From a virus, in IMG/VR virus record IMGVR_UViG_3300021093_000045, positions 1 through 64,000 of that record: a stretch of DNA of 64,000 bases; one strand, given 5' to 3'. The position numbers and the translations under genes were made by a program. Below are positions 54 through 63,065 of the stretch, in pieces (the first letter of the stretch is position 1; each line of letters starts with the position of its first letter). The notes under the pieces were generated by a model. It had not been told where the DNA came from, searched no databases, and saw nothing but the letters and a program-made list of their open reading frames with translations.

Positions 54-127
54 GCGGGTATAGCTCAATGGTAGAGTGTCAGTCTTCCAAACTGATTATG
101 TGAGTTCGATTCTCACTACCCGCTCCA
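54..127 (+). tRNA. tRNA-Gly (anticodon UCC)
   Basis: A full cloverleaf with encoded CCA. The acceptor strands GCGGGTA and TACCCGC pair perfectly. The anticodon stem TCAGT/ACTGA encloses the loop CTTCCAA, giving anticodon TCC. The T-arm is GTGAG with loop TTCGATT and CTCAC. It decodes GGA, a common glycine codon in this AT-rich genome. Confidence 0.95.
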
Positions 128-133
128 TTTAAC

Positions 134-207
134 TGGGGATTTGCATAATGGTAGTGCAGGAGACTTTGGATCTCTTAGTGAAGGTTCGATTCCTTCATCC
201 CCTGCCA
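134..207 (+). tRNA. tRNA-Gln (anticodon UUG)
   Basis: The anticodon stem GGAGA/TCTCT encloses the loop CTTTGGA, giving anticodon TTG. The T-arm is GAAGG, loop TTCGATT, CCTTC, followed by an encoded GCCA. The acceptor pairs GGGGAT with ATCCCC, but position 1 (T) faces T at position 72. Glutamine tRNAs normally have a weak U1-A72 pair, so an open first pair is compatible with glutamine identity. Confidence 0.92.
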
Positions 208-346
208 ATTTATTCGGAGTGACACTTTGATCATTTTAATAAACGTGTGTGTTGGGGGGTGACCCCAACAACGTGAGGGATGACGATACACCCCTGTAGT
301 CTGACCCGGACGAATCTGATCCAGATAGGATAGGGTTGATTTTAAT
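208..346 (+). other. Structured spacer inside the tRNA cluster
   Basis: No convincing gene lies in these 139 bases. A strong hairpin is visible (GTTGGGG 251-257, loop GGTGA, CCCCAAC 263-269), extended by flanking ACGT segments at 243-246 and 271-274. A weaker ATCTG/CAGAT hairpin lies near 315-327. It is more G/C-rich than its surroundings. It could be a processed leader of the tRNA transcript or an unrecognised small RNA. Confidence 0.35.
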
Positions 347-421
347 GGGCTGTTAGTGATAGTGGTAGCACGGGAGCTTTGCAAGCTTTAGGGAAGAGTT
401 CGATTCTCTTACGGTCCACCA
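347..421 (+). tRNA. tRNA-Ala (anticodon UGC)
   Basis: The anticodon stem GGAGC/GCTTT encloses the loop TTTGCAA, giving anticodon TGC. The T-arm is AAGAG, loop TTCGATT, CTCTT. The acceptor strands GGGCTGT and ACGGTCC pair with a G3-U70 wobble, the main identity signal for alanyl-tRNA synthetase, and ACCA is encoded. Sequence, anticodon and identity element all agree. Confidence 0.93.
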
Positions 422-474
422 TTTGAAATTAATGTTTGTTGTTAATCAACTATTTATTAATGTTCAAAGAGAGC

Positions 475-548
475 GCGGGTATGATGTAGTGGTAGCCTGC
501 AACCTTGCCAAGGTCGATGTGCCGGTTCAATTCCGGCTACCCGCTCCA
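475..548 (+). tRNA. tRNA-Gly (anticodon GCC)
   Basis: The acceptor strands GCGGGTA and TACCCGC are the same as in tRNA-Gly(UCC) at 54-127. The anticodon stem CAACC/GGTCG encloses the loop TTGCCAA, giving anticodon GCC. The T-arm is GCCGG, loop TTCAATT, CCGGC, and TCCA is encoded. This second glycine tRNA covers GGC/GGU codons; the many Gly-rich virion proteins may explain the need. Confidence 0.93.
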
Positions 549-557
549 AAATTTTAT

Positions 558-943
558 GGGCGTATACTGGTTTCGATTTAGTAGTACACCTATGTTAGGC
601 ACGTAGAGGATGATAGTTGGCCTCTTTAAAACATCTATTATAACATTAACTGCTGAAGATAATGTAATCAGCTACGACTTCTCTTATGATGATGTTGTAG
701 CAGTTGCGGCTTAAGTTGTCGCACCATCCTTCACATTGAAGTCTGATATTTGTGTTGGGTGTAAATTATTGGACTGGATCAAATGTTTGGTTTGCGCAAA
801 TGATTGAGAAAATAGTAAATCTTAAGAGTAATATTTTTAGATATTTTTTATTATTACTTCCTAACAATTTAAAATATATAAACGTGTAGGCTGATATAAG
901 TTATCTATTAAAGACAAGGGTTCAACTCCCTTTACGTCCACCA
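558..943 (+). ncRNA. ssrA: tmRNA (trans-translation RNA), one-piece
   Basis: The ends form a tRNA-Ala-like domain: GGGCGTA pairs with TACGTCC, with the G3-U70 alanine signal. There is a T-arm AAGGG/TTCAACT/CCCTT and an encoded ACCA. The 5' end continues with TACTGGTTTCGA, the classic tmRNA start. AGAGG/CCTCT (604-626) can form the first pseudoknot stem. A tag frame runs from a GCT resume codon at 652 to TAA at 712-714 and encodes 20 residues beginning AEDNVISY and ending VAVAA. The stop lies in a TGCG/CGCA hairpin as in bacterial tmRNAs. Length (386 nt) is normal. It would rescue stalled ribosomes and tag the unfinished peptides for proteolysis. It is not split, unlike alphaproteobacterial tmRNAs. 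Confidence 0.93.
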
Positions 944-1186: not shown

Positions 1187-1597
1187 ATGAAAAGATATAG
1201 TTTATTATACGAGTCCAGTATATATGACTACTTGGTGTGGGAACCTAAAGGTCAATTAAAATATATTGCGGATAAACTTGATTTGGTACCAGACGATGAT
1301 GGTGTATTATATAGAGGAATGTCTGAGAAAGAATACAATATACTTAAAAAACAAGGTAAAGTTACTAGTAAAGGTAAAGGTAATACCAGAGACATTGTTG
1401 GTAGTTATTTAGCTAGCGATTTTAAATTGGCAGCAAGATTTGCCTTAGTCAATTATAGAGATAAGGGTGAAGGTATAATAGTAGTGATTGACAAAACTAA
1501 ATTACCTGATTTAAAAAATGTAGATCCAGGCAATTATGTTACTAGTTATATACCAATAGAAGCAGTAAAACAAATTATAGACTTGAAAAAGTTATGA
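1187..1597 (+). CDS. Possible ADP-ribosyltransferase-like protein with capsid-targeting-like N-terminus
   Basis: A 136-residue protein. Residues 41-47 (LYRGMSE), 72-86 (GSYLASDFKLAARFA) and a following beta-strand (GEGIIVVID, 94-102) resemble the layout of small ADP-ribosyltransferase folds: an Arg/His-Gly NAD-contact strand, then a Ser-containing strand and a helix. I see no certain catalytic Glu, so this is a fold-level inference. The N-terminus MKRYSLLYE ends in L-Y-E, the type of site cut by T4-like prohead proteases. T4 packages an ADP-ribosyltransferase (Alt) in its head, so a packaged role is plausible. It overlaps the next gene by ATGA. Alternative: an unrelated phage protein. Confidence 0.6.
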   Translation: MKRYSLLYESSIYDYLVWEPKGQLKYIADKLDLVPDDDGVLYRGMSEKEYNILKKQGKVTSKGKGNTRDIVGSYLASDFKLAARFALVNYRDKGEGIIVVIDKTKLPDLKNVDPGNYVTSYIPIEAVKQIIDLKKL

Positions 1598-1773
1598 GTA
1601 ATATTAAACTAACAAAACAACAAGCAGAACAAAAGGTATATGAGTTAACTGAAAAACTTCTTTATGTAAAGAAAGATTTCAAGGATGTAGCTTCTGGATA
1701 TAAAGAAAAAATGAAAGAAATCGAAAACGAAATTAAGGCAATTGTGGAAGAAGCATCAACTAGTAATCCTTAA
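1594..1773 (+). CDS. Small coiled-coil hypothetical protein
   Basis: A 59-residue, Lys/Glu-rich, helical protein beginning MSNIKLTKQQAEQ. It starts inside the stop of the preceding gene (ATGA overlap), so it is probably translationally coupled to it and the pair may work together. The whole length looks like a single amphipathic coiled coil. No family recognised. A T-rich spacer (1774-1872) follows. Confidence 0.6.
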   Translation: MSNIKLTKQQAEQKVYELTEKLLYVKKDFKDVASGYKEKMKEIENEIKAIVEEASTSNP

Positions 1774-29458: not shown

Positions 29459-29524
29459 ATGTCGAGTTTAGTATTAATTTGTGATCTAAAAGAGAACATT
29501 CTAGAGAATGTCTTTAATTTATGA
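29459..29524 (+). CDS. Putative 21-residue leader peptide
   Basis: ATG at 29459 opens MSSLVLICDLKENILENVFN, and its TGA overlaps the ATG of the propeller gene (ATGA). It is preceded by a TATTTATA box at the usual 5-nt spacing. A palindrome (ACATTCT-AG-AGAATGT, 29496-29511) lies inside it and could form a small hairpin that links leader translation to the next gene. Too short for homology; supported by spacing and coupling only. Confidence 0.45.
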   Translation: MSSLVLICDLKENILENVFNL

Positions 29525-32004
29525 GTCTTACGAACATATATAACGAAAGATATGGAACATCCGTGGCTACAAATGATAACTATGTAGCTGTTGGAAATCC
29601 GCCTACCCATGATTATAATCTAGCCGAAGGATTTTATAGACATGGTGAGGTAGTTTTAATTAAAAAAAATAACTTCAATTCAAACTATTCAGCCTCATTT
29701 AGTTTTACTAAAAGTTTGCATGGCAAAACTATCAATAGTACTAGATTTGGTGAATCTATAGATTTATCGGACTATTTTTTGGCAATAGGTAATAGCGTAC
29801 TTTCTGCTAGCGTAACATCTGGTAATTGTAATTGTGTTACGATAACAGGATCTTATGTTGACGTTTATATAATTGATTCAAACTATAATATTATAAATGG
29901 TAGTTTAATAAACGACGAAACATGTGCAGTTGAAAATTTAAATACTCAAATATACACTAATACTCCATTTATTACATTAACGGGATCAAATTCGTTTGGT
30001 ACGTCCGTTAGTATAACAAACAAATACTTAGCGGTTGGGTCTCCTAAAGAAAACAATGGCCGTGGTAAGGTTTATGTATACCAATTTTCAGCTTCTAAAT
30101 ATAAGTTGGAAGCGACTCTAACTCCAAATGTTACTCAATTTCCATCTCAATATGGATTTGGATATTCAGTATCTATTGACAAAAAATACCAAGACAAAAT
30201 TGTGATTGGAAGTAATCAGTTATCACATTCAAATGTATATTTGTATCAATCATCATCTGGTGGTTGGGGATTAAAACAATATTTCTCACAAGTTACCGGA
30301 TCACTTTCTGTTGAGAATAGTTTATTTAATTGGTACCCAGTATCTCTCAAAAATTCAAATTATGGTCGCTCAGTTTCAATACACGACAGAATAATTGTTG
30401 TTGGAGCTCCTAATGATTTAGTTTATTATGAATATTCTGGATCTACAATTCAAAGACAAAGAGGTGCTTTTTATGTATATTCAACTGATCTATGTAATTC
30501 AACGCCATCAGGTAGTTATTTGTTATTAACAAAACTATATGGTGATGAAAATACATTTAAAGATAACTTTTTGGGTTATTCAGTATCCACGAATAATAAC
30601 AATATAATTGTTGGATCACCAAAAAGGTATTTTCCATTTTCATCAGTGTTCTTATCATCATCTTTAAATTTTTACAAAAATATAGCTAATGAAAATGACT
30701 TTGGTGCATCAACGTTTTTAGGACAAGTTTTATACTACCAAGTTACAGGATCCAAGATTATAAAGATGACTAGTTATCCTATCTCAAAAAGAAAAGAAAG
30801 TGAAAATAGTCCATTCTCTGCATATGGAGCTGCTGTTTCTATATATGGAAATAATATAGCAGTTGGTTCTCCTATACCATTACTAAGAGATTATTATTTG
30901 GATGTTCCATATATAACCGAATCCGGTAGTATATCAGACCCAAATTATGTACTTACATCATCTTATTATGAAGAAGGATGTGATGTAACTTCAAGTGTTG
31001 TATATTTTCAAATAGAACAATCAGTTACAACATGCGCTGGAAATCCCATATATGTAGCATTGTGTGAGGAAACCACACCCTATACCACTATTGAAGGTAA
31101 TGCTTATGTTTATAATTTGAGCGATCTTCAAACTAATTTTAACGTAGGTAATGTATTTTATAATAATAATAGAGTTGTTATAAATAACACTGGTAGTGGT
31201 TTAAATTTGATTGGTAGAAATGCAATTGATACAAACCTGCCTTTTATCTACATGGATTACGAAAGTTTGGTTCAATTGCATGAAAAACAATATATTTGTA
31301 CGTTAGAACCTGGAGAATTTAATATTTCGACTAATCCAACTGCTATAACTGGAAGTCTTATAAATTATGGAATTGTTGATAAAGTTGCCTTTGATTTTAA
31401 TAATTTAGATTTAATCCTTAGATATATAAACTACAATATTACATCGCCCAGAAGTGAAGAGTGGTGGACGAATATGGTGTCGGGGGATACCGAAATTAGT
31501 ATATTGTCATTTTATTCAGCTTCATATGATATAAACAATCCATTTACAATTGGTGCGGGCATATTACCAGGATCAAAATATCAAGAAAATAGATTAACAT
31601 ATCCGTTGAAGTGTGTTTTGGCAACTAAGAATTTTGATGTTAATGGCGATGGTAAAGTTGATTTCCAAGATGGTATTGCAATATGGAAATACTTTATTAA
31701 TAATCTAACTTATCAGAATTACAAGAATTATATAAATCCAACTAGTAGGAGAAATACATACGATGGTTTAATTAAGTTTTTAGATACCAATACTGGTAAA
31801 GGTAATAAGAATTATATTAAACCAGAATTTTTTGAGTTCTCATATAGTTCTTCAATAGATCCAACAGGATCTTATTTGGCTCCTTATATAACACAAGTAG
31901 GTTTGTATAATGGTGCTGATTTAGTAGCTATTGCTAAACTCGCTCAGCCAATTAAAAATTCTGGACAATTACCTATTAATATTGCTGTTAAATGGGATAC
32001 TTAA
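29521..32004 (+). CDS. FG-GAP beta-propeller virion protein with EF-hand/dockerin-like loop
   Basis: An 827-residue protein. Repeated blades of the form YGxSVS...NxIxVGSP (for example FGTSVSITNKYLAVGSPKE, YGRSVSIHDRIIVVGAPND, LGYSVSTNNNNIIVGSPKR) define an integrin-like FG-GAP propeller across about residues 10-460. Residues 706-717 (DVNGDGKVDFQD) form an EF-hand/dockerin-type calcium loop. The last 50 residues match the docking module of the protein at 24451. Probably a displayed adhesion module on the tail. Confidence 0.8.
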   Translation: MSLTNIYNERYGTSVATNDNYVAVGNPPTHDYNLAEGFYRHGEVVLIKKNNFNSNYSASFSFTKSLHGKTINSTRFGESIDLSDYFLAIGNSVLSASVTSGNCNCVTITGSYVDVYIIDSNYNIINGSLINDETCAVENLNTQIYTNTPFITLTGSNSFGTSVSITNKYLAVGSPKENNGRGKVYVYQFSASKYKLEATLTPNVTQFPSQYGFGYSVSIDKKYQDKIVIGSNQLSHSNVYLYQSSSGGWGLKQYFSQVTGSLSVENSLFNWYPVSLKNSNYGRSVSIHDRIIVVGAPNDLVYYEYSGSTIQRQRGAFYVYSTDLCNSTPSGSYLLLTKLYGDENTFKDNFLGYSVSTNNNNIIVGSPKRYFPFSSVFLSSSLNFYKNIANENDFGASTFLGQVLYYQVTGSKIIKMTSYPISKRKESENSPFSAYGAAVSIYGNNIAVGSPIPLLRDYYLDVPYITESGSISDPNYVLTSSYYEEGCDVTSSVVYFQIEQSVTTCAGNPIYVALCEETTPYTTIEGNAYVYNLSDLQTNFNVGNVFYNNNRVVINNTGSGLNLIGRNAIDTNLPFIYMDYESLVQLHEKQYICTLEPGEFNISTNPTAITGSLINYGIVDKVAFDFNNLDLILRYINYNITSPRSEEWWTNMVSGDTEISILSFYSASYDINNPFTIGAGILPGSKYQENRLTYPLKCVLATKNFDVNGDGKVDFQDGIAIWKYFINNLTYQNYKNYINPTSRRNTYDGLIKFLDTNTGKGNKNYIKPEFFEFSYSSSIDPTGSYLAPYITQVGLYNGADLVAIAKLAQPIKNSGQLPINIAVKWDT

Positions 32005-37015: not shown

Positions 37016-37981
37016 ATGGAAATATCAGATTCTCTCATTATTGGTGATGTAAACTTAAGTTTCACAATTAACCAAAATGGAGAGTGTCATTTTCATAAAA
37101 ATTTTGATACATCTGTTAATTTTTTTGTCATACTTAAAAGTATTGATACAAATTTAACTAACAACTTGCTTCATGTTCAAATGGGCCCCAATCATAATGT
37201 ATGGAGTTATAGTTGGCCCATAAATATAACAAAGTTGGAATGTCATCCCGGTATCATCATGGAGTTTTTTAATGAAAACTCTAAACCAATTTGTACCAAA
37301 TACTATAGATTTAAAAATACTGGATTAAATATAAAGTTGAAATCTAATGATATTGATATAACGTATCCGCCATATCAAACATTTTTCTACGATGAATCTT
37401 TTAAAAAACTCTGTAATGTTAAAGATGGTGATGTAGTCTACGATTTGGGTGCTAACATAGGCGCTTTTTCTTTAATGTGTTCAAACTATGATACTAAAAA
37501 CATATATGCATTCGAACCAAACCCATTGATATATGATTATCTAAAGTATAATTGTGATGTATATGGTAAAAATGTATCTACATATAAAAAAGCCATTTAT
37601 AAAACATTTGAATCACTAAATTTTGGTAATCTAGAGGGTGGATTAAGTCAAGGATCAGTTGCATGTTCTATCATAAATAAAGATAAAAATTTATGTTCTG
37701 TTGACGGCATTCATCTTGAAGTGTTTGCTAAAGTTAATAATCTCCAGTACCCAACATATCTTAAAGTGGATATTGAAGGCGCTGAGTATGACTTTTTTGA
37801 ATCAACGTCCGATGATTTTATTAAAAATTGTCATACTATCTTTTTAGAATTTCATAATAAAGACGAAAGACTCAACATGTTAATATCTAGATTGACCAAT
37901 TTAAATTATAAAATGTATTTTTTGACCGACAAAGATTATGTATTGTCTCAGAATATGGGTACTATATTCTTCATTAAGTGA
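37016..37981 (+). CDS. FkbM-family methyltransferase
   Basis: A 321-residue SAM-dependent methyltransferase. Residues 1-120 are a beta-rich extension. The catalytic domain has VYDLGANIGAFSLM (SAM loop, about 142-155), YAFEPNP (after strand 2) and TYLKVDIEGAEYDF (about 247-260), diagnostic of FkbM. The family O-methylates sugars and other small groups. It opens the sugar cassette after a TAATATG junction with the recombination gene and likely caps a glycan made by the next two proteins. Confidence 0.88.
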   Translation: MEISDSLIIGDVNLSFTINQNGECHFHKNFDTSVNFFVILKSIDTNLTNNLLHVQMGPNHNVWSYSWPINITKLECHPGIIMEFFNENSKPICTKYYRFKNTGLNIKLKSNDIDITYPPYQTFFYDESFKKLCNVKDGDVVYDLGANIGAFSLMCSNYDTKNIYAFEPNPLIYDYLKYNCDVYGKNVSTYKKAIYKTFESLNFGNLEGGLSQGSVACSIINKDKNLCSVDGIHLEVFAKVNNLQYPTYLKVDIEGAEYDFFESTSDDFIKNCHTIFLEFHNKDERLNMLISRLTNLNYKMYFLTDKDYVLSQNMGTIFFIK

Positions 37982-37983
37982 AT

Positions 37984-39975
37984 ATGAAAAAATTGTTATT
38001 TATCGCTCCACATTTGTCCACCGGTGGTCTTCCTCAATTTCTTTTAAAGAAGATAAAGTGTCTGATTGATATATACGACGTATATTGTATTGAATATGCG
38101 GACGTAACAGGTGGAAAGTTTATCGTACAACGAGACCAGATTAAAAATATATGTAAAAACAAGTTTTATACTTTATATGATAACAAGGAAGATATCATAA
38201 ATTTGATAAGTAAAATAAAACCGAATATTATTCACTTTGAAGAAATGCCTGAGTATTTTATGGATCTATCTATATCATCCAGAATTTATGATAAAGATCG
38301 AAACTATTTTATAGTAGAAACATCACACGATAGTAGTTTTAATTCAGATAATAAGAGAGTTTTGCCTGATCAATTTTTGTTTGTAAGTAACTTCCAGAAA
38401 CAAAATGTTAAAAAATTACCTGTTAAATCGGATGTTATTGAATATCCAGTTGAAGTAAGAACTCGTAAGAATCGTAATGATGGATTAAAAGAATTGGGTT
38501 TAGATCCTAGTAAAAAACATGTTATGCATGTAGGTCTATTCACACCAAGAAAAAATCAAAAAGAGTTTATCGAATATGCACGTGCGATGGAAAATGAAAA
38601 TGTTCAGTTTCATTGTATTGGTAATATGGCCGATAACTTTAGATCATATTGGGAACCATTATTAAATGATTTACCTAAAAATGTAAAGGTTTGGGGTGAA
38701 CGAAAAGACGTACATAATTTTTATAGTTGTATGGATTTATTTTTGTTTACAAGTCGTGGTCATGCAAACGATAAAGAAACCGCGCCAATTGTAATTAAAG
38801 AAGCTATTTCATATAATATACCAAGTTTGTTTTATAATCTACCAGTCTATTTGAATAGATATTCATGTTATGATAATATTTCTTATCTTGATGAATCTAG
38901 TTTTAATAATAATGTAGATTTGATTCGTAATAAATTGATAGGCGTTAAAACAAGTGAACGAGTTGATGATAAAGAATTTATTGCGGTTATTTCTACACAT
39001 CCAAATTATAAGATAGTAGAAGATACTACAATAAAAGCCATTCAACAGATTCAGAAGGCAGGGTATAAAGTAATATTAACATCACATTATCCAGTCAGTC
39101 AAGAGTTACAATCGTTGGTGGATTATTGTATATATGATAAAAACAATCCGTCTATAATACACAATTTTTATGCGAATTGGTCGTTGGTTAATCAATATCA
39201 CGATATAAGAGTACACTTACCATCATGTGGTGCGAACATATATCATGGGTTGGGTGTCGCATTAAATTATTACAATGGTATATCACTCGCAAATAAATTG
39301 GGATACAAGAATGTATTTGCTTTTAACTACGATGTGGTTGTAAACGAAAAAGATTTTAATAAATTAGATTTTATTAAGAATTTATTGAAGACCAAGAAAG
39401 GTTTCTTTTTCTATGATAAAGCACTTGAAGGAGATACAATCAAAACGGTATTTCATGCTATTAACACGGATTTTTATCTGGATCATTTTGAGTATTTCAC
39501 ACCTATATCATATGAGATGTTTGTTAAAGAGAAGAATATATCAAATGGTTTAGAACAATTCTATTATAACAGAGTGTTGGATCATAAAAAAGATCTATAC
39601 ATAGATACTAACAACAACGAAGAGTCATTCTTTAGTAATAGTGAAATCAATATGTTTTCTATGTGTGAATATTTGTCAGTTTTGCCAATGACTAATACTT
39701 CTAAGTTTGTTTGTTTGAGTAGTTTCAATAACAAAATAGATAAAAAATACAATAGAATATCTGTTTACAAGAATGATGTGTTGATACGAGAATCACAAAA
39801 TGAAATACAAACCAAAGGTTGGTGGCATATTGAGGTTGATTTTGAACCAAACAACGTGTATAAAGTAGTAAACGCTTTGTACGACTCTGAAAACAAAAAC
39901 ATGGTAAAAGAAGTAGTACAGGTGTTTTCTAAACTAGAGGATTTGCAGAATAACGGACATTTCACAGCTAAATAA
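37984..39975 (+). CDS. Two-domain glycosyltransferase (GT4 plus GT-A-like)
   Basis: A 663-residue protein from the ATG at 37984; a GTG six bases earlier overlaps the previous stop and is less likely. Residues 1-320 are a GT-B, GT4-type transferase (LLFIAPHLSTGGLPQFLLKK, then HVMHVGLFTPRKNQKEFIEY and the sugar-nucleotide region ETAPIVIKEAISYNIPSLFY). Residues about 325-560 are a second domain (FIAVISTHPNYKIVEDTTIK) with a GT-A-like feel. The end has a KGWWHIEVDF segment also found in the next protein. It probably builds a glycan in two steps. Confidence 0.75.
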   Translation: MKKLLFIAPHLSTGGLPQFLLKKIKCLIDIYDVYCIEYADVTGGKFIVQRDQIKNICKNKFYTLYDNKEDIINLISKIKPNIIHFEEMPEYFMDLSISSRIYDKDRNYFIVETSHDSSFNSDNKRVLPDQFLFVSNFQKQNVKKLPVKSDVIEYPVEVRTRKNRNDGLKELGLDPSKKHVMHVGLFTPRKNQKEFIEYARAMENENVQFHCIGNMADNFRSYWEPLLNDLPKNVKVWGERKDVHNFYSCMDLFLFTSRGHANDKETAPIVIKEAISYNIPSLFYNLPVYLNRYSCYDNISYLDESSFNNNVDLIRNKLIGVKTSERVDDKEFIAVISTHPNYKIVEDTTIKAIQQIQKAGYKVILTSHYPVSQELQSLVDYCIYDKNNPSIIHNFYANWSLVNQYHDIRVHLPSCGANIYHGLGVALNYYNGISLANKLGYKNVFAFNYDVVVNEKDFNKLDFIKNLLKTKKGFFFYDKALEGDTIKTVFHAINTDFYLDHFEYFTPISYEMFVKEKNISNGLEQFYYNRVLDHKKDLYIDTNNNEESFFSNSEINMFSMCEYLSVLPMTNTSKFVCLSSFNNKIDKKYNRISVYKNDVLIRESQNEIQTKGWWHIEVDFEPNNVYKVVNALYDSENKNMVKEVVQVFSKLEDLQNNGHFTAK

Positions 39976-39977
39976 TC

Positions 39978-42122
39978 ATGAAAGTAATACAAGTACATTT
40001 GGGTTTATTGCCTATTCCTCCTAATGGTTGGGGTGCTATAGAAAAAATAATTTGGGATTATTATCTTCAATTAAACAAAAAAGGATTGGAATGTGAGATC
40101 AAATTTTTGGACGATATAAAGTATAATGACAATACTATTGTTCACGTACATGTCGCTAATTTAGCAAATGAATGTCATAAACGTGGTATTCCATACATCT
40201 TTACTTTACACGATCATCATGCTTATCTTTATGGTAAAGATTCTCCAGTATTTAAAGAGAATTTAAAGGCTATAGAAAATAGTATTATATCAACATGTCC
40301 TGCAAAATATCTAGTTGACTACTTTGGTAGTAAAAAATTAAGATATTTTTCGCATGCTGTTAATACAGATACTTTTAAATACAAAAACTATAATAGAGAA
40401 AACTATAAACTATTATGTGTAGCTAATAATGGTTATGCGAACAATCAATCAGCCGATAGAAAAGGTTTTAAGTTTGCAATACAGGCGGCTAAAGAATTAA
40501 ACCTACCTATCACAATCGCCGGTCCAAGTAACAACAGGAAATTTTTTGAAACATTGGAGTCGTCATTAAACAATTATGAAAAGCTGACAAAAGTATTTGA
40601 TCTGGATGAAAATGGATTGATAGAGTTATATAACAACCATGATGTTTTTATACACGCATCAGAACTGGAAGCCGGTCATCCAAATCTAACTTTGTTGGAA
40701 GCTATGGCTTGTGGTCTTCCTGTAGTAGGAACATTTGAAGACAAAAAATACGAAGGTATGATTGTGGTTGATAGAAATACCAAACAAATCAAAGATGCTA
40801 TTGGAAAAGTTATTAGCAATTATGAACGCTATCATACAGAGGCATTAAAAGCTGCAAAAAATAATTCTTATGATAAGAGATCAGATCAGTTAATAGAACT
40901 ATACGATGAATATATTGATAAGTTATTTGCAAATAAATTTGTCAACATATACGACACATTGGATAAGAATACTAATCAAGCAACCATTACAGCTAATATA
41001 AACTATTCATTCAATGATAATGCGTGTATAGAAATAACAAATTGTGTTAATAAAGATGAATCGTTTGATGTGGTATTTAAAAACAGGGTAACCGATCAAG
41101 TTCTATATAACACAACTCTCAAAGATGGTTGGTGGGGAAGATGTGACTTTGCATATTATATTCCATTTAATATTTCAGTAAAAAGCAATTTAACAGGCAA
41201 GACTTTACTAGATTACGATTTAGATTTGACAGATAGAAATGTTTTGATTCAATTTGATACACCAGCGTTGGGTGATCAGTTGTGTTGGATGCCTATAACT
41301 GAACAATTCAGAGTAAAACATAAGTGTAATTTGTACGTAAAGATTCCAAATCTACGTCCATTTTTCGAAAAGAAATATAAGAATATCAAATTTTTGAATA
41401 TGGATGAATCCGGTCCAGAAATGTTTGCTACATATAAACCAGGCTGGTATGTGGATGATAAAACCATCAATACCAATAGATGTAAGACTGATATAAGAAA
41501 AGAGCCTCTACAAAAGATAGTTTCCGATTATCTAGGTTTGTCATATGTTCCAGAAAGACCTTTGTTAGATTTTCCATTAAAGCCTTCGACATTTACAAAA
41601 CCTACCGTGACTATTGCTACACAAAGTACATCACAATGTAAGTATTGGAATCACAAAGGAGGTTGGGAAATTGTTATCGAATACTTGAAGACTAAAGGAT
41701 TTGATGTTGTTTGTATAGATAAAAATTATAGTTGGGGTAATGGCGACAATATGAATGTTATACCTCAAAATGCTATTGATTTAACAGGTGATCATCCATT
41801 AAGTGATCGTATGAATCAAATATATCACAGCTCATTTTTTATAGGTTTACCATCGGGATTATCGTGGTTGTCATGGGCATTAGAAAAGCCAACCATATTG
41901 ATTAGTGGATTTTCATATGATTATACAGAGTTTGAAACTCCATATCGTGTGCAAAATAAAAATGTATGTACTGGTTGTTGGAATGATAATTATTTTGATA
42001 GGGGTAATTGGATGTGGTGTCCGAAGTCCGAGAAAAAGGAAATATTTGAATGTACAAAATCTATCACCCCACAAATGGTTATAGAAACAATTGATCGTCT
42101 AATTAAAGATAATAATTTATGA
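39978..42122 (+). CDS. GT4 glycosyltransferase fused to TibC-like O-heptosyltransferase
   Basis: A 714-residue fusion. Residues 1-310 are a GT4 domain (HASELEAGHPNLTLLEAMAC is the donor-binding E-x7-E region). A short beta domain with KDGWWGRCDF follows. Residues about 425-714 resemble TibC-type O-heptosyltransferases that glycosylate autotransporter beta-helix proteins: DTPALGDQLCWMP, FIGLPSGLSWLSWALEKPTI, and a four-Cys finger (C664, C667, C681, C692) like the iron-binding finger of that family. It likely glycosylates Ser/Thr on repetitive surface proteins. The phage's own repeat-rich fibres are candidate targets. Confidence 0.78.
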   Translation: MKVIQVHLGLLPIPPNGWGAIEKIIWDYYLQLNKKGLECEIKFLDDIKYNDNTIVHVHVANLANECHKRGIPYIFTLHDHHAYLYGKDSPVFKENLKAIENSIISTCPAKYLVDYFGSKKLRYFSHAVNTDTFKYKNYNRENYKLLCVANNGYANNQSADRKGFKFAIQAAKELNLPITIAGPSNNRKFFETLESSLNNYEKLTKVFDLDENGLIELYNNHDVFIHASELEAGHPNLTLLEAMACGLPVVGTFEDKKYEGMIVVDRNTKQIKDAIGKVISNYERYHTEALKAAKNNSYDKRSDQLIELYDEYIDKLFANKFVNIYDTLDKNTNQATITANINYSFNDNACIEITNCVNKDESFDVVFKNRVTDQVLYNTTLKDGWWGRCDFAYYIPFNISVKSNLTGKTLLDYDLDLTDRNVLIQFDTPALGDQLCWMPITEQFRVKHKCNLYVKIPNLRPFFEKKYKNIKFLNMDESGPEMFATYKPGWYVDDKTINTNRCKTDIRKEPLQKIVSDYLGLSYVPERPLLDFPLKPSTFTKPTVTIATQSTSQCKYWNHKGGWEIVIEYLKTKGFDVVCIDKNYSWGNGDNMNVIPQNAIDLTGDHPLSDRMNQIYHSSFFIGLPSGLSWLSWALEKPTILISGFSYDYTEFETPYRVQNKNVCTGCWNDNYFDRGNWMWCPKSEKKEIFECTKSITPQMVIETIDRLIKDNNL

Positions 42123-43759
42123 AAATAGTAGGTAGCTACATAGGACCACATGATGTTGGCGTTGCTTTAATTGAGAATAATCAAATATTAGCTTGTTATT
42201 CCGAAGAAAGATTCACAAGAGTTAAATCAGCACACGCAGGTTGTATATTCCCAATCAATAGTCTAGATGCTTTACAAAAAAACTTTAATTTTGATATTAA
42301 CGATCCAAACGTAAAATTTGCTTGTGCTAAACCTATAGCTACAGAACATAAATTTTTGCGTGATATTGTAAATAACAGAGAACTTAGAACTATTGGACAC
42401 GAATATGCACACGCATGCGGTGCTTATTATACATCCGGCTTTAACGAAAATACATTAATCGTTGCATATGATGGTGGCGATTGTGGCGATGATGATTGGA
42501 CAATATTGAATAAAGAAAATTATGATCGTTATAATCCGTGGAAGGCAAAAAACGATAGTCAAACTGCATGTTATATTGTTAAAAATGGTAAACTAATTGA
42601 AATTGGTGAACGTGTTAAAAATGGAAGCGTTGCTAATCTTTGGTTTTTGATGTGTTTGATATTTGGTCTTACTCCTATTAAAGACGAGGGTAAGATTATG
42701 GGTCTTGCTGCGCAGGGAAAATTCAATCAAAAGATATTTGATACATTGAATTTCTTTGTGCAAAACGATATGTTAAAAGCATCGTGTATGATTCAGGAAA
42801 AGTACACCACATTGTTGAAAACACTATCAAAAGAAGATGCTTTGAATCTAAAAAGAGATTTAGCATACAATCTACAATATATCAGCGAAATTACTATTCT
42901 TAATTTTATAAAGAAATATTACGATGAGTATGGACCATTTGATAATCTATGTTTAGCAGGTGGTATTTTTGCAAATGTTAAAATCAACCAAAAGATAAAC
43001 GAATTATTACCATTTAAAGAGATGTGGGTATATCCTGCTATGAATGATGAAGGATTATCTCTTGGATCAGCAATTGCATATGCTGTAGAATTGGGTGTGT
43101 TTACAAATAGAAGAATTGATAATGTATTTCTTGGTAATAAAACATCATATCAAGACACACAAATTGATATTGATAATTTCCAATCCAATTTTGGAAAGAC
43201 ACTAGCATCCGAAGATTTAGATTTTAATAAAATTGGAGACTATCTGGTTGATGGTAAAGTTATTGGTATATTTGATGGTGCTACAGAATATGGTCCAAGA
43301 GCTTTAGGTTCACGTTCTATTGTTGTAGAGCCAACCAGAAAAGAAACTCATGCATATATAAATGAAAGATTAAAACGTGACGATATTATGCCATTCGCAC
43401 CTATAGTCATGGAAGAATACATTGAGGATGTATGCTATGTATATAAATCTAAAAGAACTGCAGAGTTTATGACTTTATGTTATACCGTAAAAGAACAATG
43501 GGCCAATAAAATACCGGCGGTTATAAATTTTTATGATAATACAGCTAGACCACAAGTTGTAAATAAATATAGACATTCTCTATTTCATAAGATACTTTCC
43601 GCTTATAATCATCGATCTAAAATACCCGTTTTAATGAATACAAGTTTTAATGGTCATGGAGAGCCTATTATCAATTCACCAAATCACGCACTAAAACATT
43701 TGGCTGAAGGTACTGTAGATCTTTTAATTATTAACAATAAAATTTATAAATTAGTATGA
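42119..43759 (+). CDS. NodU/CmcH-type carbamoyltransferase
   Basis: A 546-residue carbamoyltransferase of the NodU/TobZ type. The N-terminal half has the kinase-like fold (GSYIGPHDVGVALIENNQIL, GHEYAHACGAYYTSG, LIVAYDGGDCGDDDW and LAGGIFANVKINQKI). The C-terminal YrdC-like half has EYGPRALGSRSIVVEP and KIPVLMNTSFNGHGEPI. These enzymes make carbamoyl-adenylate and transfer the carbamoyl group to a sugar hydroxyl. It overlaps both neighbours by ATGA, which fixes it in the sugar operon. Likely decorates the same glycan as the neighbouring enzymes. Confidence 0.93.
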   Translation: MKIVGSYIGPHDVGVALIENNQILACYSEERFTRVKSAHAGCIFPINSLDALQKNFNFDINDPNVKFACAKPIATEHKFLRDIVNNRELRTIGHEYAHACGAYYTSGFNENTLIVAYDGGDCGDDDWTILNKENYDRYNPWKAKNDSQTACYIVKNGKLIEIGERVKNGSVANLWFLMCLIFGLTPIKDEGKIMGLAAQGKFNQKIFDTLNFFVQNDMLKASCMIQEKYTTLLKTLSKEDALNLKRDLAYNLQYISEITILNFIKKYYDEYGPFDNLCLAGGIFANVKINQKINELLPFKEMWVYPAMNDEGLSLGSAIAYAVELGVFTNRRIDNVFLGNKTSYQDTQIDIDNFQSNFGKTLASEDLDFNKIGDYLVDGKVIGIFDGATEYGPRALGSRSIVVEPTRKETHAYINERLKRDDIMPFAPIVMEEYIEDVCYVYKSKRTAEFMTLCYTVKEQWANKIPAVINFYDNTARPQVVNKYRHSLFHKILSAYNHRSKIPVLMNTSFNGHGEPIINSPNHALKHLAEGTVDLLIINNKIYKLV

Positions 43760-50222: not shown

Positions 50223-50870
50223 ATGAAAAGAGCATTAGGTAAAAGCAATCTCGATATTATTAAAGATTACGTGGATGGTAATCGTCCATTCGTGCAAGTT
50301 GGTTATGATTCTAATCTTGAAAATAGTAAACGCAAAGAAGGTGATGAGTGGGAGGATGGGCAGGGACGGAAGTGGATTTGGAAAAATGGTAGTAAACGCC
50401 GTGTTTCAAAACGAGCATCAATCGTTGTGGAACAACGTTGTAAACACTGCAATATGGATGTTCGATGGGGTAGTTATTTGGATGATAGAACATGGCCAAA
50501 GTCTGGATTATGTTATGAATGTTTTATAAATGAAGAAACTCATCTTAAAAAATTGGGTATTTGGGATACATTCAACAAAATCCGTGAACTCAAGAATATA
50601 AAATCAGCATTGTTGGATTATAAGAATAAATTTGAAGAGGCTAAAAACTGGTGTGACCAAAATCATAATAAACCAGTTGAATTTCTTGAAGAAGATGGAT
50701 CTATAGAACATTGGGAAGGAGTGCCAGATATGTCAAAAATCCGTGAAAATATAGAGTTAGACTTAACAGCCGTAGTAAAAAGATTAGAAAATATAGATGC
50801 TGAGATTAGTGAATTAGAAACAAAATATGAGTCAGCAAAACTTAAGAGAGATAATAAAGCAAGAATATAA
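50223..50870 (+). CDS. Zinc-finger protein upstream of terminase
   Basis: A 215-residue protein. It has a CKHC ... CYEC zinc ribbon (about residues 73-100) and a C-terminal coiled coil (about 160-212, ENIELDLTAVVKRLENIDAE). The basic segment KWIWKNGSKRRVSKR could touch DNA. Its end overlaps the large terminase by 44 nt. T4 gene 16 (small terminase) lies at this spot, so a DNA-recognition role in packaging is possible, though the zinc ribbon is not a feature of gp16. Low certainty on function. Confidence 0.65.
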   Translation: MKRALGKSNLDIIKDYVDGNRPFVQVGYDSNLENSKRKEGDEWEDGQGRKWIWKNGSKRRVSKRASIVVEQRCKHCNMDVRWGSYLDDRTWPKSGLCYECFINEETHLKKLGIWDTFNKIRELKNIKSALLDYKNKFEEAKNWCDQNHNKPVEFLEEDGSIEHWEGVPDMSKIRENIELDLTAVVKRLENIDAEISELETKYESAKLKRDNKARI

Positions 50871-52440
50871 AAAATGTATTGAAAATCCTATATACTTCAT
50901 AAAGAAGTATGTAAAGATTCAACATCCCATACGTGGTACAGTTGGATTTGAATTGTATCCATTTCAAGAGAAGGCATTACAAGACTTTGTTGATAATCAA
51001 TTGAACATTGTTCTTAAAAGTCGTCAGATGGGTATTAGCACTCTTACTGCTGCTTATAGTTTATGGTTAATGACATTCCATAATGATAAGAATATTTTAT
51101 GTATTAGTATAACACAGGAAACCGCAAAGGAAATCGTTACCAAGGTAAGATTTGCTAATGATAATCTTCCTAGTTGGTTAAAAGTGCCATGTGTGGAAGA
51201 TAATAGATTGTCACTGAGATTAAAGAATGGATCACAAATTAAAGCTGTCTCATCGGCTGGCACAGCAGGTCGTTCATCAGCATTATCATTGTTAATTATA
51301 GACGAAGCTGCGTTTATTGATGGTATAGAAGAAATTTGGTTATCATCACAATATACTTTATCTACTGGTGGTAGATCGATTATATTAAGTACACCGAACG
51401 GCGTTGGTAACTTTTTTCATAAAACATGGATTGAATCGGAAGAAAACGAAAAGTCTGGTAAAAAAGGATTCAAAACAATAAAATTGCCATGGCATTTACA
51501 TCCAGAAAGAGATCAATCGTGGAGAGATAATCAGACAGAATTATCAGGTGTAAAGGGTGCTGCGCAAGAATGTGATTGTGATTTTAGTACATCAGGCAAT
51601 CAAGTAGTTAGTGTTGATGTATTGGAATTTTATAAACAAACATACATAAAAGATCCTATAGAAAGGCGAGGTAATAATCAAGATTTATGGATATGGGATT
51701 ACCCAAATTATAGCAAGAATTATTTAGTGACAGCTGATTGTGCTAGAGGCGATGGTGCAGATTTCAGCGCTTTTCATGTTATAGATGTTGATACTATGGA
51801 ACAAGTTGCAGAATATAAAGGGCAATTAACTACAAAAGATTATGGCAATCTATTAGTAACTATTGCTACTGAATATAATAATGCACTATTAGTTGTAGAA
51901 AACAATAACGTTGGTTGGGGTACACTTCAACAGATTATTGACAGAAATTATCCTCATACGTTTTATAGTTCAAGTGATCTCACAATTGTGGATGTGGAAA
52001 AAACATATAGCAACAAATTACATGCACAAGATAAAAAGATGGTTGCTGGATTTACTACAACTACTAAAAACAGACCATTAGTTGTAAGTAATTTGGAGTT
52101 ATTTTTTAGACAAAAACAAGTAATTATTAAATCGAAACGATTATATGAAGAGTTGAATGTTTTTATTTGGAATGGACCAAAAGCAGAAGCACTACGTGGC
52201 TACAATGATGATTTGGTAATGTCTATGGGAATAGGATTATGGGTACGTGAAACTGCACTTAGACTTAGAAATGATCAGATTGCTTACAATAGACAAATGT
52301 TAGCAGGCATTAGTAAAGTATCCAGCGTTCATAATTCTCCTATATTAACAAAACCATTTGGTTCTCCTACAGAAGGGTGGGATTTCAACCCAAATGCTAA
52401 TATAAACAGTAAAAAAGAAAGTTTAACTTGGTTGTTATAA
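50827..52440 (+). CDS. gp17: Terminase large subunit, gp17-like
   Basis: A 537-residue packaging motor. The ATPase domain has LYPFQEKALQDFVDNQLNIV, Walker A KSRQMGIST (about residues 62-70) and Walker B LLIIDEAAFID (about 156-166). The nuclease domain (about 290-480) has VTADCARGDGADFSAFHVID, LLVVENNNVGWGT and YNDDLVMSMGIGLW, which carry the acidic metal ligands. It packages and cuts concatemers into proheads. Slightly shorter than T4 gp17 (610). It is followed directly by the portal gene. Confidence 0.95.
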   Translation: MSQQNLREIIKQEYKKCIENPIYFIKKYVKIQHPIRGTVGFELYPFQEKALQDFVDNQLNIVLKSRQMGISTLTAAYSLWLMTFHNDKNILCISITQETAKEIVTKVRFANDNLPSWLKVPCVEDNRLSLRLKNGSQIKAVSSAGTAGRSSALSLLIIDEAAFIDGIEEIWLSSQYTLSTGGRSIILSTPNGVGNFFHKTWIESEENEKSGKKGFKTIKLPWHLHPERDQSWRDNQTELSGVKGAAQECDCDFSTSGNQVVSVDVLEFYKQTYIKDPIERRGNNQDLWIWDYPNYSKNYLVTADCARGDGADFSAFHVIDVDTMEQVAEYKGQLTTKDYGNLLVTIATEYNNALLVVENNNVGWGTLQQIIDRNYPHTFYSSSDLTIVDVEKTYSNKLHAQDKKMVAGFTTTTKNRPLVVSNLELFFRQKQVIIKSKRLYEELNVFIWNGPKAEALRGYNDDLVMSMGIGLWVRETALRLRNDQIAYNRQMLAGISKVSSVHNSPILTKPFGSPTEGWDFNPNANINSKKESLTWLL

Positions 52441-52465: not shown

Positions 52466-54343
52466 ATGACTGATAAATCATTTCAAGAATTAAAGAATAG
52501 ATCGCTTTTTGCAAGATTAAAACGTCTTTTTAGTAATGATGTTATTGTACGTAATATTGGTGGTAAGAAATTAAAGGTAATTGACACTGATGAAATTCAA
52601 TATGCTACAGATCGTAATAGTTTAAGAGATCGTTTTAATCGTCTTAGAACTACCGCATATAATCAATATACCCGTGACTTTAATCTTAGCTATCAAAGTA
52701 GTCGTGTAGAACTATTTCGCGATTATGATACAATGGATATGGATCCAATTCTCGCATCTGCATTAGACATTTATTCGGATGAATGTACAAGTAAAAATGA
52801 ATTGGGTGACATTATCTCTGTTCAATCTTCGAATGATGATATCAAACAAATATTAAACAATTTATTTTATGATATTCTTAATATTGAGTTTAATCTTTGG
52901 TCTTGGACTCGTAGCATGGTCAAGTATGGCGATTTTTATTTAAGGTTACATATCAGTCCAGAATATGGCGTATACATGGTTGAACCACTTAGTTCATATT
53001 ATGTTACTCGTATTGAAAATGCACATCTACAAAATAAGAATTTTGTTAAGTTTCAAGTTAATCTTCCATATGGTAATAAAATTGAAGATCTTGAGAACTA
53101 TCAAATTGCACACTTTCGTTTACTGAGTGATAGTAACTTCTTACCTTATGGTAAGAGTATGTTAGAAGGTGCTCGCCGTGTTTGGAAACAATTGAGTTTA
53201 ATGGAAGATGCAATGTTGATTCATCGCATCATGCGTGCTCCAGAAAAACGTATTTTTAAAGTCGATATTGGTAATATTCCTCCAAATGAAGTTGATAATC
53301 ACATGGAACGAATTATTGCGCAAATGAAAAAGACTCCATATTTGGATCAACAAACTGGTGACTATAATTTACGTTTTAACCTTCAAAACATGGTTGAAGA
53401 CTTTTTCCTACCAGTTCGTGGTGGCGATAGTGGTACAAGTATTGATAATTTGCCTGGACTAGAATGGACAGGTACAGATGATATTGAATATCTACGCAAT
53501 AAGATGATGTCAGCACTTAAGATTCCAAAGGCATTCTTGGGGTATGATGAATCATTATCTGGTAAGGCTACATTGGCGGCTGAAGATATTCGTTTTGCTA
53601 GAACAATTCAACGTGTACAACGTATTATTGTTAGTGAATTGAACAAGATTGCGGTAATTCATTTGTATAGTCAAGGATATAGAGATGAATCGTTGGTAGA
53701 CTTTAGTTTACAATTAACAAACCCATCTACTATCTTTGAAAAGGAAAAGATTGATGTTTGGAAAAGCAAAGTAGAAGTAGCCAAAGACATGCAAGAACAA
53801 AAATTGTTCAGCAAAAAATGGATTTATGATAACGTATTTAGCATGTCTGAGCAAGATATGATTAATTTACAAAAACAATTAATCGATGATGCTAAAGGAA
53901 TTTATAGATTTAAACAAATTGAAGAAGATGGTAATGATCCAGCTTTAGCATTCTTAAAATCAAAGGGAGAAGAATCTGGAGGCACTGATACTGGTGGAGA
54001 TGCGGGTAGTGGCGAAACTGGAGGAACTGAGTCTGGCAGTGAGGCTGGTGGTACACCCCCAGAATCATCTGGTGGTGGAAGTGAAACTCCAAAATTAACT
54101 GAAAAGAAAAGAGATCAAACTGGTAGAAAGGATGCTAGTAAATACCCATTCGGAGAAGACCCATTTGGTAATTTAGAAAACAAGAGAGTTAGCGATTTAT
54201 CACCAACGCACAAATATAAAAATAAATCACCGTTGTCGCTAGAGTCATTGTCGGTTTTGTTAAAAGATTTCGAAACCAAGGAAGTTTTGAAAGAGTCTGT
54301 AAAAAAACCATCTTTTATGGACGAAAATAATATAAAAGAATAA
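52466..54343 (+). CDS. gp20: Portal protein, gp20-like
   Basis: A 625-residue portal. The start ATG at 52466 is chosen because an earlier ATG at 52454 runs into a stop. The core is recognisable: YDTMDMDPILASALDIYSDE, VEPLSSYYVTRIEN, LPYGKSMLEGARRVWKQLSL, RAPEKRIFKVDIGNIPPNEV and KIPKAFLGYDESLSGKATLA, all typical of T4-like portals. The C-terminus has a Gly/Ser/Glu-rich stretch (about 510-555) and ends with a basic tail. It forms the dodecameric ring through which DNA enters. Confidence 0.95.
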   Translation: MTDKSFQELKNRSLFARLKRLFSNDVIVRNIGGKKLKVIDTDEIQYATDRNSLRDRFNRLRTTAYNQYTRDFNLSYQSSRVELFRDYDTMDMDPILASALDIYSDECTSKNELGDIISVQSSNDDIKQILNNLFYDILNIEFNLWSWTRSMVKYGDFYLRLHISPEYGVYMVEPLSSYYVTRIENAHLQNKNFVKFQVNLPYGNKIEDLENYQIAHFRLLSDSNFLPYGKSMLEGARRVWKQLSLMEDAMLIHRIMRAPEKRIFKVDIGNIPPNEVDNHMERIIAQMKKTPYLDQQTGDYNLRFNLQNMVEDFFLPVRGGDSGTSIDNLPGLEWTGTDDIEYLRNKMMSALKIPKAFLGYDESLSGKATLAAEDIRFARTIQRVQRIIVSELNKIAVIHLYSQGYRDESLVDFSLQLTNPSTIFEKEKIDVWKSKVEVAKDMQEQKLFSKKWIYDNVFSMSEQDMINLQKQLIDDAKGIYRFKQIEEDGNDPALAFLKSKGEESGGTDTGGDAGSGETGGTESGSEAGGTPPESSGGGSETPKLTEKKRDQTGRKDASKYPFGEDPFGNLENKRVSDLSPTHKYKNKSPLSLESLSVLLKDFETKEVLKESVKKPSFMDENNIKE

Positions 54344-59795: not shown

Positions 59796-61562
59796 ATGGA
59801 TGTAAAAAGTCTATTAACAAATAATATGAATCCACAAGCCAAATTGATGGCCGAAACCCGTGGATTACAAACTAAGTGGGAAAAGACAGGCCTTCTTGAA
59901 GGCGTAACTGGTGTTGAAAAGGCACACATGTCAATCCTATTAGAAAACCAAGCAAAGCAATTGCTAGATGAAGCTTCTACAACTGGTACATCAACCAGTT
60001 CAGAACAATGGGCTGGCGTTGCTCTACCATTAGTTCGCCGTGTATTCGCTGAAATTGCTGCTAAGGAATTCGTAAGCGTTCAACCAATGAATTTACCATC
60101 CGGTCTAGTATTTTACTTAGACTTTAAGTATGGTACTGGTAAGTTGGGTCAAACCCCAGGCACTAGCTTGTTCGGTGGTACCAATTCTGCTAAGTTCGGT
60201 TCAACCGATGCAGCAGTAAATGGTCTATACGGTCAAGGTCGTTTTGCTTACTCTGAACGTGTAGTAACGAGTTCAGCATTCACATCCGCAAACGCAACTG
60301 TAACTTCCGCAAGCTGGAAAGATCTACAATTTGATTCAGCATTTAGCTCCTCATTGTCAGGCACTAATGTTAAGGGTGTCTTCAAGATTGCTCTAGATAT
60401 TAACGACAATACTCAAGCCACAAACGGATCTTTAGCCGCTACTGGTTATGTATGGAATGCTGACTTGAACGCAGTACGTTCATTTGGTCTGCAAACTACG
60501 GGTAACGTAGGCCTAACTGTATTAAACACCTACGCCAACGTAGTAAATACAGGTACTATTGCTGCACCAAACTACGTAATTAACTTGTTCGTAAGTCAAT
60601 CAAGTACCGCTGCTACCCCAGCACAAACTCCAAAGTTGAACTACACAATTCAACCTACAGATAATCGCCGTGGTGACTTTGAAGCTGGTAAGACCGCAGG
60701 TGAAGGTTCTGGTAATGCTGCTGGTACCGCTACACAACCTATCGGTGACGATATCAGTATTCCTGAAGTAAACTTGGTACTAAACAGCGAACCAATAGTT
60801 GCTAAGACCCGTAAGTTGAAAGCAGTCTGGACTCCAGAATTGGCTCAAGACTTGAACGCATATCATTCCATCGATGCAGAAGCAGAACTTACTGCTCTAT
60901 TGAGTGAATATGTATCTATGGAAATCGACCTCGAAATCCTAGACATGTTGAACGAGTCCGTAACTGGTACTACTACCGAAGCTTGGTCAGCCCAAATTGG
61001 TACTGAGTTCACTAAGACTCTAAGCTTTGCAGGTGGTGGTACAACAGGTACTCCGGTTGCTAACTTCACCCGTGTAGTTAACAGCTCACCAAATCGTACT
61101 GCTTACGTTAAGAGCACTTGGTTCCAAACTCTTGGTAACAAGATCCAAAAGGTCTCAAACAAGATTCACCAATTGACTCTACGTGGTGGTGCAAACTTCC
61201 TAGTATGTTCACCAGACGTAGCAACTATCTTGGAATCAATCCCAGGTTATGTTGTTAACACAGATGGTGATCAAGCTAAGTTCGCAATGGGTGTAAGTCG
61301 TGTTGGTAGCTTCGCAAGTCGCTTCCAAGTTTACAAGAACCCATACATGACTGATAACGTAATCTTGGTTGGTTTCCGTGGAAGCAACTTCCTAGAAACC
61401 GGTGCAGTATATGCTCCATATATTCCACTAATCCAAACTCCATTGGTTTATGACCCAACTAACTTCACACCACGTAGAGGCGTAATGACCCGCTACGCTA
61501 AGAAGGTAGTGCGCCCCGAATTCTATGGAAAAGTTCTTATCAGTGATCTTGACACCGTATAA
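59796..61562 (+). CDS. gp23: Major capsid protein, gp23-like
   Basis: A 588-residue HK97-fold capsid protein. The N-terminal pro-segment ends at a likely prohead-protease site, QLLDE-A (E59-A60), comparable with E65-A66 in T4. The core includes VRRVFAEIAAKEFVSVQPM, KTRKLKAVWTPELAQDLNAY, and DAEAELTALLSEYVSMEIDL, all typical of gp23. The end carries VRPEFYGKVLISDL. It has a Shine-Dalgarno (AAGGA), clearly optimised codons and its own terminator, as expected for the most abundant virion protein. Confidence 0.95.
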   Translation: MDVKSLLTNNMNPQAKLMAETRGLQTKWEKTGLLEGVTGVEKAHMSILLENQAKQLLDEASTTGTSTSSEQWAGVALPLVRRVFAEIAAKEFVSVQPMNLPSGLVFYLDFKYGTGKLGQTPGTSLFGGTNSAKFGSTDAAVNGLYGQGRFAYSERVVTSSAFTSANATVTSASWKDLQFDSAFSSSLSGTNVKGVFKIALDINDNTQATNGSLAATGYVWNADLNAVRSFGLQTTGNVGLTVLNTYANVVNTGTIAAPNYVINLFVSQSSTAATPAQTPKLNYTIQPTDNRRGDFEAGKTAGEGSGNAAGTATQPIGDDISIPEVNLVLNSEPIVAKTRKLKAVWTPELAQDLNAYHSIDAEAELTALLSEYVSMEIDLEILDMLNESVTGTTTEAWSAQIGTEFTKTLSFAGGGTTGTPVANFTRVVNSSPNRTAYVKSTWFQTLGNKIQKVSNKIHQLTLRGGANFLVCSPDVATILESIPGYVVNTDGDQAKFAMGVSRVGSFASRFQVYKNPYMTDNVILVGFRGSNFLETGAVYAPYIPLIQTPLVYDPTNFTPRRGVMTRYAKKVVRPEFYGKVLISDLDTV

Positions 61563-63035: not shown

Positions 63036-63065
63036 AACCCCCTTCCGAAAGGTTGGGGGTTTTTT
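63036..63065 (+). terminator. Bidirectional terminator between convergent genes
   Basis: Stem AACCCCC/GGGGGTT with an inner CC-GAAA-GG hairpin. It is followed by TTTT on the + strand and by GTTTAATT on the minus strand. It stops the pyrophosphatase transcript and probably also the Mom-like gene, whose stop codon is at its edge. Confidence 0.85.

What the first reader, a model, noticed from the sequence alone, without database searches (positions are those of the whole stretch)
558..943. Phage tmRNA with a long, atypical tag
A complete one-piece tmRNA is present, with an alanine G3-U70 acceptor and a 20-residue tag (AEDNVISY...VAVAA) that is longer than the usual 8-15. Only some large phages carry ssrA. 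A phage tag could redirect stalled products to different proteases or improve ribosome recycling while host mRNA is degraded.
Basis: partly seen in the sequence, partly recalled or inferred. Interest (0 to 1): 0.7.

Follow-up and report, generated by a model that had tools for sequence, protein, structure and literature searches.

The report
Phage tmRNA with long conserved tag
A bacteria-infecting virus carries its own complete copy of the RNA that frees stuck ribosomes and labels unfinished proteins for destruction; its label is about twice as long as the labels of the bacteria it probably infects and is conserved in its virus family, but viruses carrying this RNA, and viruses with long labels, were already known.

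Summary
Window 558-943 is a complete one-piece tmRNA (RF00023, 114 bits, E 7e-44, full length). It has a G3-U70 acceptor, a T-arm, an encoded CCA, four pseudoknots and an H5 hairpin with the stop codon in its loop. Across 36 distinct relatives, 52 of 91 pairs show compensatory changes (shuffles 29, slid controls at most 22). The record is a 78.8-kb T4-like phage fragment; 33 of 50 related viral records carry the tmRNA.

The 20-residue tag is real and lineage-specific: A[EK][DE]NV[VI][SA]YDFSY...A[VLI]AA in 61 viral contigs, with no match among 84,980 prokaryote genomes. Codon variation fits a translated tag. Tags read from the likely host phylum, Bacteroidota (host inferred), are 9-10 residues (GENNYALAA type). 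The phage tag keeps that frame (xExN...AxAA) with about 11 extra codons.

It is not outside known biology: tags of 8-35 residues are reported, about 2% of phages carry tmRNA, and mycobacteriophage ET08 has a 25-residue tag.

Most likely it does ordinary trans-translation with host SmpB and host proteases. Redirection to other proteases is unsupported, because the C-terminal degron is kept. Extras: the tRNA-like shell was swapped repeatedly among relatives, and a nearly invariant unidentified element lies upstream (268-345).

The parts
558..943 (+). complete one-piece tmRNA gene (ssrA)
   Evidence: ARAGORN, RF00023 114.2 bits full length, covariation in 36 distinct relatives
558..564 (+). acceptor stem 5' strand GGGCGUA, pairs with 933-939; G3-U70 wobble; discriminator A940 and CCA 941-943 encoded
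   Evidence: 100% of cells paired, 4 of 7 pairs with compensatory change, G-U invariant
916..932 (+). T-arm AAGGG-UUCAACU-CCCUU
   Evidence: 100% paired, 5 of 5 pairs with compensatory change
577..603 (+). helix P2 5' strands (577-584, 592-598, 600-603), pairing with 905-912, 891-897, 883-886
605..641 (+). pseudoknot 1 (605-609/621-625 and 610-616/635-641), upstream of the tag
   Evidence: the outermost pair of the second stem is specific to this sequence
652..714 (+). tag frame: resume codon GCU 652-654, 20 codons AEDNVISYDFSYDDVVAVAA, stop UAA 712-714
   Evidence: third codon positions vary far more than first and second in 34 relatives
664..699 (+). tag codons 5-16, about 11 codons more than the Bacteroidota-type tag between the shared ends xExN and AxAA
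   Evidence: alignment with Bacteroidota tmRNAs; tags
706..722 (+). helix 5 hairpin (706-710/718-722) with the stop codon in its loop
   Evidence: 99.4% paired, 2 pairs with compensatory change
725..774 (+). pseudoknot 2 (725-735/751-761 and 741-748/767-774)
777..821 (+). pseudoknot 3 (777-781/801-805 and 789-795/815-821)
   Evidence: poorly formed on the alignment in the distant L114 and L124
827..877 (+). pseudoknot 4 (827-833/852-858 and 841-847/871-877)
54..548 (+). tRNA cluster just upstream: Gly(UCC) 54-127, Gln(UUG) 134-207, Ala(UGC) 347-421, Gly(GCC) 475-548
   Evidence: the same kinds of tRNA flank the tmRNA in many relatives

Best explanation
It is a functional phage tmRNA used for ordinary trans-translation during infection. 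Shown by sequence: an alanine-type acceptor, a T-arm, pseudoknots 1-4, a resume codon after PK1, a 20-codon tag frame and a stop in helix 5, kept by selection in a T4-like phage lineage. Inferred: host AlaRS charges it; host SmpB and EF-Tu bring it to ribosomes stalled on broken mRNAs, which should be abundant in a lytic infection; the ribosome adds Ala-AEDNVISYDFSYDDVVAVAA and is released; host ClpXP-type proteases read the C-terminal A-[V/L/I]-A-A. The longer, conserved middle of the tag more probably changes affinity or adaptor use than selects a new protease.
For: Full-length RF00023 match. 52 of 91 pairs with compensatory change across 36 distinct relatives, against 28.9 +/- 2.8 in shuffles and at most 22 when slid. 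G3-U70 invariant. Codon-position bias of a translated tag, 16 of 20 third positions variable against 10 of 40 others. Conserved in 33 of 50 related records. A[VLI]AA end kept. Bacteroidota genomes nearly all have a tmRNA of their own (114 of 118). No SmpB in 23 phage records, so the partner must be the host's.
Against: No expression, charging or tagging data. The host is inferred, not known. 17 of 50 related records lack a match, though most are fragments. Some close relatives encode no CCA (L089, L090, L114) and would need host CCA addition. The role of the long middle of the tag is unexplained.
Confidence: 0.8

Rival explanations
1. The phage tmRNA rescues ribosomes, but its long tag changes the fate of tagged proteins: it avoids or out-competes a host adaptor, slows degradation, or recruits a phage factor.
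For: The middle of the tag (NV[VI]SYDFSY) is conserved in the clade and absent from bacterial genomes by pattern. Other large phages have long tags with other ends: ET08, 25 residues ending ALV; L449, 22 residues ending VLV as read by eye. One 303-kb relative carries two ClpP-like genes.
Against: The C-terminal degron is kept in this lineage. No ClpP in this record or in 21 of 22 others tested. No adaptor or protease partner was identified. Conservation could also reflect an RNA constraint or short divergence.
Confidence: 0.25
2. It is a decaying host ssrA fragment or a by-product of recombination, without function.
For: Fragmentary tmRNA exists in phages (DS6A; PMC4131195). Two contigs (L120, L123) have chimeric 5' and 3' ends with mispaired acceptors.
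Against: All helices are kept by compensatory change across the clade, the tag frame shows coding constraint, and the tag matches no genome in the collection.
Confidence: 0.03
3. The extra tag codons are an inserted RNA hairpin rather than a selected peptide.
For: In the window, GCUACGAC (671-678) can pair with GUUGUAGC (694-701) in 8 of 8 positions, and 93% of cells pair in relatives.
Against: No pair has a compensatory change and shuffles pair equally well (450 of 500 at least as high); codon-position bias points to a peptide (not significant for the extension alone).
Confidence: 0.06

Closest known systems
Bacterial one-piece tmRNA, RF00023 (Bacteroidota ssrA)
   Same: tRNA-like domain with G3-U70, P2, PK1-PK4, resume codon after PK1, tag, stop in helix 5 loop; tag ends shared (xExN ... 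AxAA).
   Different: Tag 20 against 9-10 residues; Ala rather than the common Gly resume codon; encoded CCA; acceptor GGGC instead of GGGG; phage-borne, next to tRNAs.
Mycobacteriophage Bxz1-type tmRNA (ET08 examined here)
   Same: One-piece phage tmRNA inside a tRNA cluster, with a long tag (25 residues).
   Different: Unrelated phage and tag sequence (ATDTDATVTDAEIEAFFAEEAAALV), ending ALV, not AxAA.
Bacillus phage G tmRNA
   Same: One-piece phage tmRNA in a large phage, next to tRNAs.
   Different: 13-residue tag AKLNITNNELQVA; shorter RNA (309 nt).
Two-piece tmRNA of OM43 phage Melnitz and pelagiphages (PMC9004378)
   Same: tmRNA in aquatic myophages, proposed to keep hijacked translation working.
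   Different: Circularly permuted two-piece with a glutamine riboswitch; here one-piece and no Rfam riboswitch in the window.

Membership tests
one-piece tmRNA (RF00023) | covariance model match over its full length above the curated cut-off | tested here: met
   114.2 bits against 47, model positions 1-374 of 374
one-piece tmRNA (RF00023) | alanine-type tRNA-like domain: G3-U70, T-arm, discriminator A | tested here: met
   G3-U70 in 36 of 36 distinct relatives
one-piece tmRNA (RF00023) | PK1 upstream of the tag and PK2-PK4 downstream | tested here: met
   all eight stems pair, with compensatory changes in each
one-piece tmRNA (RF00023) | open tag frame from a resume codon to a stop in the helix 5 loop | tested here: met
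   652-714; helix 5 706-710/718-722; coding bias
one-piece tmRNA (RF00023) | binds SmpB, is charged with alanine and tags proteins | not testable with these tools
   needs experiments; no SmpB gene in 23 phage records, so a host SmpB would be needed
two-piece (permuted) tmRNA | circular permutation with an intervening segment | tested here: not met
   5' and 3' halves are in one-piece order and match RF00023 full length
TLD-only tmRNA mimic (DS6A type) | tRNA-like domain without tag and pseudoknots | tested here: not met
   all domains present
host-derived Bacteroidota tag | short tag of the GENNYALAA, ANDYSYAMAA or DNNYSYRLAA type | tested here: not met
   20 residues; Bacteroidota tags read here are 9-10 residues

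The most novel reading that the evidence does not exclude
Large phages repeatedly evolve tmRNA tags of 19-36 residues, two to four times the tag length of their probable hosts and sometimes with non-canonical ends, and swap the tRNA-like shell independently of the tag core. Phage trans-translation would then be a tuned system that gives its products a different proteolytic fate from that given by the host's own tmRNA.
Probability: 0.25. Interest if true: 0.65.

Novelty: new member of a known kind. Interest (0 to 1): 0.36.

Why it matters
Phage tmRNAs are known but hardly tested. This lineage offers a clean comparison: a 20-residue, phage-only tag against 9-10-residue tags in the probable host phylum, with similar ends and a conserved extra middle. 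That makes a direct question testable: does a virus alter the fate of proteins from rescued ribosomes? The repeated exchange of the tRNA-like domain around a related core is also unusual, and standard software (ARAGORN) misses the second type, so phage tmRNA counts are probably too low.

Tried and rejected
An inserted hairpin in the tag: no covariation. A tag copied from bacteria: the degenerate tag pattern has no exact match in 84,980 genomes; a looser pattern in 395 genomes of the Flavobacterium phylum hit three places and ARAGORN found no tmRNA in those loci. A cyanophage: no psbA/psbD-family protein in 33 records including Mel-JY01; but Mel-JY01, recorded from Microcystis, is as close as the Flavobacterium phages by Gp23 and portal, so the host stays open. 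From memory some cyanobacterial tags (ANNIVSF...) resemble this tag; I could not test that. blastn of the tmRNA against named phages gave only short weak matches. Bxz1 and Wildcat were not found under the accessions tried; the Bxz1 relative ET08 served instead. Fnu1 and phiPMW had no match. tblastn of window 29521-32004 found nothing. Sigma-70 and terminator scans of 1-1250 were at chance level.

Full report
OBSERVATION. ARAGORN finds a tmRNA at 558-943 (+) with tag AEDNVISYDFSYDDVVAVAA, after four tRNA genes. Rfam RF00023 matches it end to end at 114 bits, E 7e-44. The window starts at base 1 of a 78,794-base virus record that is T4-like: Gp23 major capsid (59796-61562), Gp20 portal (52466-54343), T4-type terminase (50827-52440), and a tail sheath stabiliser beyond the window.

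STRUCTURE. I collected the same gene from related viral contigs. 33 of 50 records found through a baseplate-wedge protein have a full tmRNA, and a degenerate tag pattern found it in 61 contigs. On 36 distinct aligned sequences I wrote a 91-pair structure with 14 helices: acceptor, T-arm, P2 in three parts, H5 and two stems for each of four pseudoknots. 94.3% of cells pair; 52 pairs have compensatory changes, against 28.9 +/- 2.8 in shuffles and at most 22 when partners are slid. G3-U70 never varies. The structure was drawn on the window's own sequence, which favours the percentage paired; relatedness of the sequences also inflates shuffle contrasts, so the slid control is the safer one. SmpB binding could not be tested.

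TAG. In the clade the tag is 19-20 residues: A[EK][DE]NV[VI][SA]YDFSY, then a variable stretch, then A[VLI]AA, with one AVVA. Third codon positions vary at 16 of 20 sites against 10 of 40 first and second positions, p=7.5e-5, as expected for a translated frame; the sequences are related, so this p-value is optimistic. The extension taken alone shows the same trend but is not significant (p=0.07). A possible hairpin inside the tag has no covariation support. The degenerate tag pattern has no exact match in 84,980 prokaryote genomes; this tests that pattern only.

HOST. The closest named phages by Gp23 and portal (50-55% identity) are Flavobacterium phage immuto and Microcystis phage Mel-JY01; Rhodothermus phage RM378 is more distant, at 34-37%. 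Only 5 of 44 genes have a Shine-Dalgarno-like motif, and no psbA/psbD-family protein occurs in 33 records. I infer a Bacteroidota host; this is not shown. Bacteroidota tmRNAs read here have tags of 9-10 residues such as GENNYALAA, ANDYSYAMAA and DNNYSYRLAA. Aligned to these, the phage tag keeps the first four and last four positions in register and has about 11 extra codons between.

KNOWN OR NEW. Tags of 8-35 residues are documented (PMC3968760), and 2.3% of 18,146 phage genomes carry tmRNA (PMC9004378). Mycobacteriophage ET08 has a 25-residue tag and phage G a 13-residue tag by the same tool. So this is a new member of a known kind with a new tag family. More distant relatives add variety: L447 AKNVIAYDFTPEMDEVAVAA (20), L448 ADDNVIAYDFSYDEVAVAA (19), L449 GKLNKLAGLEVSLVEDSEAVLV (22, stop in the loop of a 6-bp hairpin), and a 36-residue candidate in the 484-kb phage LR756508. 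The frames of L447, L449 and LR756508 are my reading, not ARAGORN's. The 36-residue one lacks an obvious helix 5 and is uncertain.

MECHANISM. No SmpB gene was found in 23 phage records, and ClpP-like genes only in one 303-kb relative. The simplest reading is trans-translation with host SmpB and host protease. The conserved middle of the tag suggests that something reads it, but what does is unknown. Redirection to another protease is possible but unsupported, since the C-terminal degron is kept. Expression, charging and tagging are all inferred.

SHELL EXCHANGE. Fourteen of the 36 sequences have a second type of tRNA-like domain: acceptor GGGGAUG/CAUCUCC, D-loop UAG instead of UGG or AGG, and T-loop UGCGACU instead of UUC. 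ARAGORN misses these. In 79 Bacteroidota tmRNA-like matches the T-loop always starts UUC; in part that check could only see TT or TG there, and no TG was seen. On a tree of the core the two types need 5 changes, and well-supported branches force at least 3, so shell and core have been recombined repeatedly. Two contigs, L120 and L123, have a type-1 5' end and a type-2 3' end with mispaired acceptors; these may be assembly chimeras. D-loop and T-loop changes go together in all other sequences, which may be one event only.

Noticed in passing
window 268-345: A nearly invariant ~78-nt element between tRNA-Gln and tRNA-Ala, ending in a U-rich run, found in 28 viral contigs by pattern. It looks like a small RNA; sroE (RF00371) matches at only 20.4 bits against a cut-off of 51, and it is absent from named phages by blastn.
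   Followed up: partly
L092, L093, L094, L097, L099, L101, L104 and others: A second tRNA-like domain type (T-loop UGCGACU, D-loop UAG) on a related tmRNA core, exchanged at least three times; missed by ARAGORN.
   Followed up: partly
L120:849-1235 and L123:1410-1796: Chimeric tmRNAs with a type-1 5' end and a type-2 3' end and a mispaired acceptor stem; recombinants or assembly chimeras.
   Followed up: no
L290:1501-1947 (LR756508.1): A tmRNA in a 484-kb phage whose frame from a GGC resume codon would give a 36-residue tag; ARAGORN's 8-residue tag looks wrong. The same record has a separate 112-nt RF00023 match at 414804-414915.
   Followed up: partly
L365, L366 (record G038, 303 kb): Two ClpP-like genes in a relative that also carries the tmRNA.
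   Followed up: no
L345 (Bacteroidota genome G161): A second, degenerate-looking tmRNA copy with a GENNYALAA frame about 45 kb from the normal gene.
   Followed up: no
window 1594-1773: A 59-codon ORF downstream of the tmRNA with a similar ORF downstream of the tmRNA in L448; no Pfam or PHROGs match.
   Followed up: partly
window upstream of ORFs at 7520, 10085, 25579, 56980, 61672 and others: Many genes have TTTATAT-like motifs about 5-12 bases before the ATG and almost no Shine-Dalgarno motif; perhaps late promoters with very short leaders.
   Followed up: no
window 63064-63855 (-): Mom-family protein (PF25680, E 5e-43), a DNA modification family.
   Followed up: no
window 37016-43759: An FkbM methyltransferase, two glycosyltransferases and a carbamoyltransferase in a row, perhaps for surface or DNA modification.
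   Followed up: no
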